A program made the translations under genes and the position numbers. The notes under the pieces were generated by a model that did not search any database, had not been told where the DNA came from, and saw only the letters and a program-made list of their open reading frames with translations. Below are positions 34,063 through 38,648 of a stretch of DNA of 46,733 nt, piece after piece; position 1 is the first letter of the stretch; each line of letters starts with the position of its first letter. The DNA is taken from the NCBI GenBank assembly GCA_945881915.1, contig CAMCVW010000025.1, positions 1-46,733 of the forward strand, given 5' to 3'. The stretch comes from Thermoflexus hugenholtzii JAD2. GTDB lineage: Bacteria > Chloroflexota > Chloroflexia > Chloroflexales > Roseiflexaceae.

Positions 34063-34100
34063 CGACACGCATAACCGCGTGCTGTGAAGTGAGCTCTCGG

Positions 34101-34607
34101 ATGATATTCCACCATGACCCCGACCCACGCCTCATCACCGTACGCCGCGGCGGGTCGCTGACCGACGAACATCACCGTCTGCTTGCACAGTGGGCAGCGA
34201 CCTGTGCAGCACACGTGCTTTATCACTTCAGCCTTGCGCAACCCAACGACGATCGCCCGCGCCAGGCTATTGATGCAGCAATGGACTGGGCGCTTGGTGG
34301 TGCGCGTGGCGTGATGGAGGTACGCGCACTGGGAGGGCATGCGATGGCTTCGGCTCGGTTGCTCCGTGGCGCTCCACGCGCGGCGGCTTTTGCTGCAGGG
34401 CAAGCGGCGTGCGTTGCGCACGTCGCGGCCCACGACCTTGGGGCCGCAGCATATGCGATTCGCGCAGTACAGCAGGCGGCGGGTATCGCAGCCGGCCGTA
34501 CCGAATGTGCCTGGCAGCGGGCACAGCTCGCTGATGCCGTGCGTGCATTGGTACTATGGGAGAAAGTGCGGCGGAACAGCGTCTGCTGGTCTGTGTTTGT
34601 GGAATGA
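34101..34607 (+). CDS. Imm5-like putative immunity protein
   Basis: A 168-residue all-alpha, Ala-rich protein. Segments LTDEHHRLLAQWAATCAAHVL, RPRQAIDAAMDWALGGARGVMEVRALG and AHVAAHDLGAAAYAIRAV match the pattern I know from proteins annotated as putative immunity protein (Imm5-like), sometimes mislabelled as exonuclease SbcC. Such proteins were proposed to protect against polymorphic toxins, but no toxin gene is next to it here. The start is uncertain: GTG at 34089 or ATG at 34101, neither with a good ribosome site. It is a single-gene unit between two terminators. Confidence 0.65.
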   Translation: MIFHHDPDPRLITVRRGGSLTDEHHRLLAQWAATCAAHVLYHFSLAQPNDDRPRQAIDAAMDWALGGARGVMEVRALGGHAMASARLLRGAPRAAAFAAGQAACVAHVAAHDLGAAAYAIRAVQQAAGIAAGRTECAWQRAQLADAVRALVLWEKVRRNSVCWSVFVE

Positions 34608-36174: not shown

Positions 36175-36207
36175 ACGCCTGGCAGATTGTCTGCCAGGCG
36201 TCTTTTT
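36175..36207 (+). terminator. Rho-independent terminator after the fucosidase
   Basis: ACGCCTGGCAGA (36175-36186) pairs with TCTGCCAGGCGT (36190-36201), followed by CTTTTT. It lies between convergent genes and may serve both. Confidence 0.85.
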
Positions 36208-36250: not shown

Positions 36251-37909
36251 TTAGGGCAGGAATGGTGGTCTGCGAGTCGGCGGCGGTCCATCCGTTGCGC
36301 GTGGCGGCGCTGCCCCATCTGACCCGCCCGGTGGTGATCCCGAAGTTCCACCTTCAGACGGTGGTGCCCCATCTGACCCGCCCGGTGGGGATCCTGGAGT
36401 TCCACCCTCTGACGGTGGTGCCCCATCTGACCCGCCCGCTGGTGATCCCGGAGTTCCACCCTCTGACGATGGTGCCCCATCTGACCTGCCCGGTGGTGGT
36501 GATCCCGGAGTTCCACCCTCTGACGGTGGTGCCCCATCTGACCTGTCCGGTGGTGGTGATCCCGGAGTTCTGCCGGGTGGCGGTGGCCCTCCCGGTGATC
36601 CGCCCTGCGACGGCAGCGGTTGTTGACCGGGTTGCCCTCCAGATTGCCCCGCAGGATTTTCTGATGGACATGGTCGACTACCCGGCGCAGCGACACACGG
36701 TCCTGACTTGGTTCCTGGAGCGCCCGAATCAGCCTGATTCTGCTGTTGCGGATCCCTCGGTGGCCTATTTGGGTCTGTAGGATTACGTGGATCACCTTCT
36801 TTTCCGCGAGAACCATCGACGTTCTCTCCAGACCCGTTCGACTGCATCGAATCTACCACTTGCGGGAGCACGCCAGAAAGTGCATTTGCGCACTCCGGTG
36901 GGAGCGCTCCACCTTGCCAGCCGAGGCACGAATCGTTAGACTGCTGGACTGCCGTTTGACACTGTTCATCCGCCGGCTGCGCATTGTCGAGTAACGACCC
37001 GACGCAACCGTAGAACACCGCACCGCGGATTTCTGCTTCGCGCCCCTCGGGACCAGCAAACTGTACCACTGCCGGCGGTAACGGAATGACTTCGCCGGTG
37101 GCAATGACCGCTTGTGGCGCGACATGTGCCGATGCCAAGCCCACACCCGATACCGCGACACTGACCACAACGGTCGACGCAGTTGTCGCCAGACCGACAC
37201 TCACTTTGCTGGCGGCAGATGCACTTGCATTGAGCACGCCCACCGTCGATTGACTCAGTTTGTCGATGTAGACGTGCACCGATTCGACGGCATAGTGGAA
37301 TGATTTACTGAACGTTTGCACCCGCTGGCGTGAGCCAGTCGATTGGCGCCGGAACCGTTGGATGCCGCTGACTGCACTGCGCAAGGGACGAACCAACCCA
37401 ATCAACAGGACGAGATCTATGACGTCCAATTGATTTTGAAACGCTGTGTAGAGCCCAAAGGCAGACAGCACAAAAACAGCACCTGCGCTGAGTGACAGTG
37501 TACTCACCAGAAGGAGCCAGGCGAGATTGTCGAGCTTGCGCACGAACCACGCGAACAGGTGCGCCATGCGACTCACTATGACCCGCGATGCAAGCAGGTC
37601 CAAAAAATCGCTACCAATCGGTACCTGCGTCTGCGCTGCTATGTATGGCACATGTGCGGCAAAGCGCCGGCGCCATTGCATGAAGCGGACCATGAGGAGC
37701 ACAACCGCACAACCCACCAATCCCAACAAGAAATTCTGTTTGCCGGGTTGTTGATAGGCATCGACAAATCCGATGACACCGGTCGCGAGGCTCGCAATGG
37801 TTGCAACAAAGACAACCGCCGATTCAAACTTGCGCTTGCCGGCAGCAGATTTTGTGTGCGCCTGGGGGACCTGCGCCAGAATTGCATCGGCAGAGAGGTA
37901 ACTATCCAT
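36251..37909 (-). CDS. Multi-pass membrane protein with Cys-containing region and Pro/Gly-rich repeat tail, function unknown
   Basis: 552 residues, no family recognised. The N-terminal half has about five hydrophobic segments (near 30-50, 59-77, 126-150, 157-172 and 240-262). After them comes a stretch with several Cys (YGCVGSLL, DEQCQ, DSCLGW, PPECAN), then a low-complexity tail from about residue 345 rich in Pro, Gly, Ser and Asp. The tail ends in five units of about 18 residues of the type GGTPGSPPGGSDGAPPSE. This suggests an anchored protein whose tail is exposed outside. GGAG precedes the ATG at 37909. It overlaps the upstream gene by 8 bp, so the two form an operon. Confidence 0.72.
   Translation of the reverse strand: MDSYLSADAILAQVPQAHTKSAAGKRKFESAVVFVATIASLATGVIGFVDAYQQPGKQNFLLGLVGCAVVLLMVRFMQWRRRFAAHVPYIAAQTQVPIGSDFLDLLASRVIVSRMAHLFAWFVRKLDNLAWLLLVSTLSLSAGAVFVLSAFGLYTAFQNQLDVIDLVLLIGLVRPLRSAVSGIQRFRRQSTGSRQRVQTFSKSFHYAVESVHVYIDKLSQSTVGVLNASASAASKVSVGLATTASTVVVSVAVSGVGLASAHVAPQAVIATGEVIPLPPAVVQFAGPEGREAEIRGAVFYGCVGSLLDNAQPADEQCQTAVQQSNDSCLGWQGGALPPECANALSGVLPQVVDSMQSNGSGENVDGSRGKEGDPRNPTDPNRPPRDPQQQNQADSGAPGTKSGPCVAAPGSRPCPSENPAGQSGGQPGQQPLPSQGGSPGGPPPPGRTPGSPPPDRSDGAPPSEGGTPGSPPPGRSDGAPSSEGGTPGSPAGGSDGAPPSEGGTPGSPPGGSDGAPPSEGGTSGSPPGGSDGAAPPRATDGPPPTRRPPFLP
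36313..36588. repeat. 54-57-bp tandem repeat within a coding region
   Basis: The sequence CCCCATCTGACC recurs at 36313, 36367, 36421, 36475 and 36532, a period of 54, 54, 54 and 57 bp. On the minus strand it encodes the Pro/Gly/Ser repeat tail of the membrane protein. The copies are similar but not identical. Confidence 0.85.
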
Positions 37910-38648
37910 TGAGGGACTCCGTCAATCCGTTAAGCACTTGCACCCAGAGGAGTGCCGATTCCATCGAATCGCTCACGCGAAGCTCTGATTGACCCGATTT
38001 GGAGGTGATTTGCTCATCACGAACCGCTAGCACATATGCATTGTTGGTGATGACGGGTATCGATTCTCGTAGATTGAGTGTGGTGATTTTTGTGCGAGGT
38101 GCATACAAATCCATACCAAAAAAGCGCACTGCTCCGCCATGGAGCTCAGCGAGCTGTGTCGCGTTACCGACTTGTGCTCCCAGTGCAAATTCAGGAATAG
38201 CTACATGACCGACAAAATCACTCAGTAGTGACTTGAGTGCCACCGTCGGTGGTGTAGGCAGTTGCAAGCAGTTGGCCATTGACTCCGAGATGCCTAGGCC
38301 GTGTGCATAGCGCACCTGCACACCGATGCGCTGCGCGGCTTGTTGAACCGTTGGCCATAGCGTATTGGTGAGTGCGCCTGCTGGGGTGACCAATGCAGCC
38401 CACCCATCACTCTGGGCCGAACGGAGGGCACGTGCGACGGTCGCGAGTAAATCTTCGGAGTTCCAGGCAGCGTCACTTGGGCCATGCTGCGACTGGGCGT
38501 TGAGTTTGCTGACTATGGAACGTGTGTCGGCATCGAGGCCGAACGTCTCGACCCGATAGACATCACTGACGAGTGCCGCTCCAGCGCGCGAGAGGCAGCC
38601 AGGACCCCAGCCGGTCGAAACGAGGGCTATTTCGTTGCGGAATGCCAT
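37902..38648 (-). CDS. Unknown protein, possibly a diverged tetrapyrrole-methylase-fold enzyme
   Basis: 248 residues, no confident family. The N-terminus IALVSTGWGPGCLS resembles the first strand and G-x-G-P-G loop of tetrapyrrole (TP) methylases. The middle, DGWAALVTPAGALTNTLW then GVQVRYAHGLGISESMANCLQLP, follows the order of that family's second strand and its PGxSS-type loop. The pattern is loose, and the SAM-binding residues cannot be confirmed. The rest (about 140-248) has no motif I know. It is the first gene of an operon with the repeat-tailed membrane protein. AAGGA precedes the ATG at 38648. Confidence 0.6.
   Translation of the reverse strand: MAFRNEIALVSTGWGPGCLSRAGAALVSDVYRVETFGLDADTRSIVSKLNAQSQHGPSDAAWNSEDLLATVARALRSAQSDGWAALVTPAGALTNTLWPTVQQAAQRIGVQVRYAHGLGISESMANCLQLPTPPTVALKSLLSDFVGHVAIPEFALGAQVGNATQLAELHGGAVRFFGMDLYAPRTKITTLNLRESIPVITNNAYVLAVRDEQITSKSGQSELRVSDSMESALLWVQVLNGLTESLNG

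What the first reader, a model, noticed from the sequence alone, without database searches (positions are those of the whole stretch)
36251..38648. Two-gene operon of unknown function: methylase-like protein plus repeat-tailed membrane protein
The genes overlap by 8 bp and neither belongs to a family I recognise. The first has a loose tetrapyrrole-methylase pattern (GWGPG, then ALVTPAG, then HGLGISES). The second has about five membrane spans, a Cys-bearing region and five Pro/Gly-rich units. The TP-methylase fold has been recruited elsewhere for peptide backbone methylation, so a modifying enzyme paired with a repetitive surface protein is a possible new system. This is speculative.
Basis: inference. 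Interest (0 to 1): 0.6.

Follow-up and report, generated by a model that had tools for sequence, protein, structure and literature searches.

The report
Methylase-fold and membrane protein gene pair
A freshwater Chloroflexota genus carries a tightly coupled pair of unstudied genes, a far-diverged relative of tetrapyrrole-type methylases and a membrane protein with a disordered proline-rich surface tail; they are inherited together, but the evidence does not support the idea that the first chemically modifies the tail of the second.

Summary
The two genes are real. They overlap by 8 bp (ATGGATAG) with an internal GGAG site. Among the class genomes searched the pair is confined to one Roseiflexaceae genus (7 of 11 genomes), always in the order A-B where both ends are on the contig, and both genes are under purifying selection.

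Gene A (248 aa) reaches no family cut-off. Its low-confidence AlphaFold model matches only TP-methylases among the 50 listed PDB hits (Foldseek E down to 5e-7; N-domain Z about 12), borosin enzymes among them, and Pfam TP_methylase aligns co-linearly with one ortholog (E 0.042). The proposed mechanism is not supported: the SonM/OphMA active-site Tyr/Arg/Tyr/Tyr are absent from all homologues, the partner does not resemble the ORFs beside borosin-type enzymes in this phylum, and the tail repeats are lineage-specific and missing in some orthologues.

Gene B is a predicted 5-TM, C-out protein with a conserved four-Cys ectodomain and a disordered Pro-rich tail.

Best reading: a cytosolic, ligand-binding TP-methylase-fold protein working with a surface-anchoring membrane protein. 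The exact activity is unproven.

The parts
37902..38648 (-). Gene A: 248-aa soluble protein, probable divergent tetrapyrrole-methylase (TPM) fold
   Evidence: ORF; homologues in seven genus genomes; AF2 model matches TPMs; Pfam PF00590 E 0.042 co-linear in one ortholog
38247..38648 (-). A N-terminal domain (residues 1-134), the conserved half; carries STG(W/Y)GP.C, LVTP.G, VR(Y/F).HG.G..ES..CLQ at the places of TPM cofactor loops
   Evidence: 59/134 residues invariant versus 16/114 in the C-terminal half
37905..38246 (-). A C-terminal domain (residues 135-248), poorly conserved
   Evidence: model low confidence
36251..37909 (-). Gene B: 552-aa membrane protein
   Evidence: ORF; homologues; alignment
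37124..37909 (-). B membrane core (residues 1-262), five spans, predicted N-in/C-out
   Evidence: hydropathy and positive-inside charge counts
36860..37123 (-). B ectodomain (residues 263-350): conserved VxPxAxIATGxVxPLPP stretch and four invariant Cys
   Evidence: 19/38 and 11/50 invariant columns, the most conserved part of B
36254..36859 (-). B tail (residues 351-552): disordered Pro/Gly/Ser-rich, 3/202 invariant columns
36311..36570 (-). 54-bp tandem repeat coding for the (S)DGAPPSEGGTPGSPPGG units
   Evidence: TRF 4.7 copies, 87% matches
37902..37909 (-). 8-bp overlap of A stop and B start, ATGGATAG
   Evidence: an 8-bp overlap also in the other seven junctions
37917..37920 (-). GGAG ribosome-binding-like site for B inside the last codons of A
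   Evidence: sequence of the junction; GGAG in own, G007, G006, G002 and G009 copy 2

Best explanation
A and B form a translationally coupled two-protein module. B is a 5-TM protein, N-in/C-out, that displays a conserved ectodomain with four invariant cysteines (probably disulfide-bonded) and a disordered, proline-rich tail reaching into or through the cell envelope. A is a cytosolic protein with a far-diverged TP-methylase fold, which most likely still binds a ligand in the inter-domain cleft (SAM or another small molecule). It most likely acts on, or through, the cytosolic face of B (loop 77-125 and the basic segment 181-238), as a regulator or assembly partner rather than as a modifier of the tail. 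Shown: gene structure, overlap, co-inheritance, purifying selection. Supported by prediction: fold of A, topology of B. Inferred only: physical complex, ligand binding, regulatory role.
For: A and B occur in the same seven genomes and in no other genome of the relatives or class searched, adjacent with the same overlap. Two genomes hold tandem copies. A and B identity matrices correlate, r 0.89 over 21 pairs of copies. AF2 model of A: strand-helix order of a TPM; the 50 listed Foldseek PDB rows are all TPMs, E 5e-7 to 2e-5; VIA-align Z 11-12.7 for residues 5-120 at 2.5-3.1 A. Pfam TP_methylase aligns residues 7-132 to profile 2-131. The YabN-type TPM profile ranks A members above nearly all of 3500 shuffles (median rank 12), in register, better than 14 unrelated control profiles (best median rank 169). 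Conservation of A is concentrated in the putative cofactor loops, which argues for a maintained binding site.
Against: The AF2 model of A has mean pLDDT 54 and pTM 0.43. Profile-profile comparison of A with TPM groups is not significant, P 0.02-0.2, and one shuffled control did better; a wider YabN set lowered the ranks. There is no direct evidence of binding between A and B or of any ligand. No informative model of B (pLDDT 38). Co-inheritance within one genus may partly reflect simple linkage.
Confidence: 0.5

Rival explanations
1. A is an active SAM-dependent methyltransferase whose substrate is B (tail, cytosolic loop or ectodomain before export): the first reader's system.
For: TPM fold, with borosin enzymes among the best structural matches; translational coupling with B.
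Against: SonM residues Y58, R67, Y71, Y93 (mutational effects in PMC8429565) fall at H55, S64, L68 and V87 of A; no Tyr occurs between residues 44 and 71 in any of seven homologues. The tail is not conserved in sequence or repeat type. B is not similar to the ORFs upstream of borosin-type enzymes.
Confidence: 0.1
2. A is an active small-molecule methyltransferase or related enzyme of TPM fold, and B is its transporter, anchor or resistance partner.
For: Conserved cleft residues in A; in four genomes a PLP enzyme that looks like the Cys/Met-metabolism type lies directly upstream.
Against: In own, G007 and G006 the neighbours are different, so no pathway context is conserved; B does not match a transporter family.
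Confidence: 0.2
3. A is a pseudoenzyme, a TPM-fold scaffold without ligand, that only stabilises or localises B.
For: Loss of the standard GxGPGDP, GDP/GHPG and PGxS forms and of borosin active-site residues.
Against: The replaced loops are themselves strictly conserved, unexpected if the cleft were unused.
Confidence: 0.12
4. A is not a TPM; the predicted fold is an artefact of a shallow alignment.
For: Low pLDDT, weak profile scores.
Against: Model, Pfam alignment and YabN profile agree on the same register.
Confidence: 0.1

Closest known systems
YabN/MazG N-terminal TP-methylase domain
   Same: Best-scoring TPM subfamily profile for A, in register over residues about 70-135
   Different: A has no MazG domain, lacks the GDP and PGxS loop forms, and similarity is near the detection limit
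Borosin peptide alpha-N-methyltransferases (SonM, OphMA)
   Same: TPM fold; among the best structural matches
   Different: Active-site Y/R/Y/Y absent in A; the partner is a membrane protein downstream, not a soluble precursor upstream
Tetrapyrrole methylases CbiL, CbiF, SUMT/CysG; RsmI
   Same: Fold
   Different: No sequence-level match above Pfam threshold; canonical SAM motifs altered

Membership tests
TP-methylase superfamily (PF00590) | Pfam score above the curated cut-off | tested here: not met
   Best 14.2 bits versus cut-off 27.8, E 0.042, one ortholog only, but co-linear 7-132 to 2-131
TP-methylase superfamily (PF00590) | TPM fold | tested here: inconclusive
   Foldseek E 5e-7 and Z up to 12.7, all listed rows TPMs, but from a model of pLDDT 54
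TP-methylase superfamily (PF00590) | Canonical SAM-loop motifs (GxGPGDP, GDP/GHPG, PGxS) | tested here: not met
   Replaced by GxGP.C, TP.G, HG.G
TP-methylase superfamily (PF00590) | SAM binding and methyl transfer | not testable with these tools
   needs purified protein
Split borosin | Active-site Tyr58, Arg67, Tyr71, Tyr93 (SonM numbering) | tested here: not met
   for the residues, for the alignment; no Tyr in residues 44-71 nor in the LVTP.G stretch of any homologue
Split borosin | Separate precursor with a helical borosin-binding domain and a core peptide | tested here: not met
   The only coupled partner is the 5-TM protein B; no similarity to the upstream ORFs of borosin-type loci L074/L076. 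Whether those ORFs are true precursors was not tested
YabN/MazG | C-terminal MazG pyrophosphatase domain | tested here: not met
   A ends after the TPM-length region and has no MazG hit

The most novel reading that the evidence does not exclude
A is a TP-methylase-fold enzyme with a rebuilt active site that modifies its membrane partner B post-translationally: a role for this fold at the cell envelope, outside peptide natural products.
Probability: 0.1. Interest if true: 0.75.

Novelty: new variant of a known kind. Interest (0 to 1): 0.38.

Why it matters
It would add a divergent branch of the TP-methylase fold that is linked to a membrane protein rather than to cofactor, rRNA or peptide-product chemistry, and it shows a small, co-inherited surface module in freshwater Chloroflexota about which I found nothing written.

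Tried and rejected
Pfam, NCBIfam and PHROGs scans: nothing over threshold; HTH_62, SulA, HK_VicK and DUF2231 hits are weak and scattered. PDB sequence searches: chance hits only. Viral contigs, plasmids, phages: none. Phylum-wide profile searches for A and B: only short, chance-level pieces outside the genus. hhalign of A against TPM groups: not significant, and no better than a shuffled control. AF2 of B: uninformative, so no fold search was made with it. Sigma-70 promoter scan: no excess over shuffles. Assigning A to the borosin clan because its LD..TR..V..LN stretch resembles DPATEAFI..N: rejected, since the borosin-type profile scores A no better than shuffles. Literature: no paper found describing such a pair.

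Full report
Observation. Gene A (37902-38648, minus, 248 aa) and gene B (36251-37909, minus, 552 aa) are present as stated. The A stop and the B start share ATGGATAG; a GGAG lies 7 nt before the B start inside A. All eight junctions examined have an 8-bp overlap, with ATG or GTG as the B start. Purifying selection (own versus G007 and G006: dN/dS 0.11-0.15 for A and 0.11-0.13 for the B core; synonymous sites are near saturation) shows that both are real genes.

Distribution. The window is contig 25 of a 3.1-Mb genome; two close relatives are Roseiflexaceae MAGs (record titles RH-23may17-1005 and Jr-16oct17-210). A is found in 7 of 11 genomes of the genus and in none of the other 147 genomes of the class; B in the same seven. 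The four genus genomes without the pair are 60-93% complete and fragmented, so true absence is uncertain. A phylum-wide sample gave no further relatives above chance, nor did viral contigs, plasmids or phages. In every copy where both genes fit on the contig the order is A-B with overlap. G009 and G010 carry tandem copies; the second A of G009 runs off contig C215, and the A fragment at the edge of contig C120 is similar but not identical to it, so its pairing with the C120 copy of B is assumed. Neighbours differ: SmpB, alpha-fucosidase, B, A, iron-sulfur CCG protein in own and G007 (G006 shares the CCG side); a PLP enzyme upstream of A in G002, G005, G009 and G010. Identities of A and B co-vary over pairs of copies (r 0.89), which common descent alone could also produce.

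Fold of A. No curated family is reached. AlphaFold2 from a seven-row alignment gave a weak model (pLDDT 54, pTM 0.43) with the strand-helix order of TP-methylases. All 50 listed Foldseek PDB matches are TP-methylases: CbiL, SonM, CbiF, OphMA, SUMT, CysG. VIA-align gives Z 11-12.7 for residues 5-120 at 2.5-3.1 A; whole-length superpositions have rmsd near 13 A, so the relative placement of the domains is not trustworthy. Sequence evidence is weak but agrees in register: PF00590 aligns residues 7-132 of the G007 copy to profile 2-131 at E 0.042 in a 24,736-model search; a four-sequence YabN TPM profile ranks the seven copies at median 12 of 3500 shuffles, while 14 unrelated profiles have median ranks of 169 or worse. 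Against it, hhalign is not significant and a shuffled control scored better, and a seven-sequence YabN profile gave a median rank of 102. I put the TPM fold at about 0.88.

Is A a borosin-type enzyme? SonM residues Y58, R67, Y71 and Y93 matter for activity or SAM binding (PMC8429565). In two alignments the corresponding places in A hold H55, S64, L68 and V87; independent of alignment details, no homologue has a Tyr in residues 44-71 or in the LVTP.G stretch. Borosin-type enzymes do occur in this phylum: L074 (60% identical to a consensus of that family) and six genomes of one same-order genus. The two tested score 70-76 bits with PF00590 and have an ORF immediately upstream that overlaps the enzyme gene. 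The window pair has neither feature, and B has no similarity to those ORFs. The consensus used as a seed was written from memory of the family; the PDB search confirmed that it matches SonM and OphMA.

Conservation in A. 59 of 134 N-terminal residues are invariant versus 16 of 114 C-terminal ones (one row is truncated). The invariant blocks fall where TPM cofactor loops would be, with altered motifs. Inference: the cleft still binds something, but not in the standard way. The conserved C-terminal LNGLTE of A may in part reflect the ribosome-binding site for B.

Protein B. Hydropathy shows spans near 31-49, 59-77, 130-150, 160-181 and 240-262 in all eight copies; charges favour N-in/C-out. The stretch 263-350 is the best conserved (30 of 88 invariant columns; four Cys). 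The tail has 3 of 202 invariant columns, and repeats are of different kinds: DGAPPSEGGTPGSPPGG here, EGTQGPPPP and RPTDVPPP in G007, ATDAPPPPQ in the C120 copy of G009, none in G009 copy 1 and G010. An enzyme specific for the repeats is therefore unlikely; an envelope-spanning disordered linker is likelier.

Verdict. The pair is an undescribed, genus-restricted module whose best reading is a cytosolic TPM-fold partner of a surface-anchoring membrane protein.

Noticed in passing
L074:1132-2342 (minus): Borosin-type methylase gene in another Chloroflexota genome, overlapping by 4 bp an upstream 143-aa ORF that could be a split-borosin precursor.
   Followed up: partly
L075-L080; L076:1132-2518 (minus): Six genomes of one same-order genus carry a SonM-like methylase; in L076 a 198-aa ORF overlaps it upstream.
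   Followed up: partly
window 34089-34607 (+): Imm-5-like putative immunity protein (PF21805, E 7.5e-29) next to smpB; no toxin gene was looked for.
   Followed up: no
L023 (G009:C215), L026 (G009:C120), L025 (G010:C120): Tandem copies of the A-B pair; the copies in G009 are only 62% (A) and 42% (B core) identical, so an old duplication.
   Followed up: partly
window 36175-36201: Strong 12-pair stem-loop with a T run on the + strand, a likely terminator of the alpha-fucosidase gene that converges on the pair.
   Followed up: no
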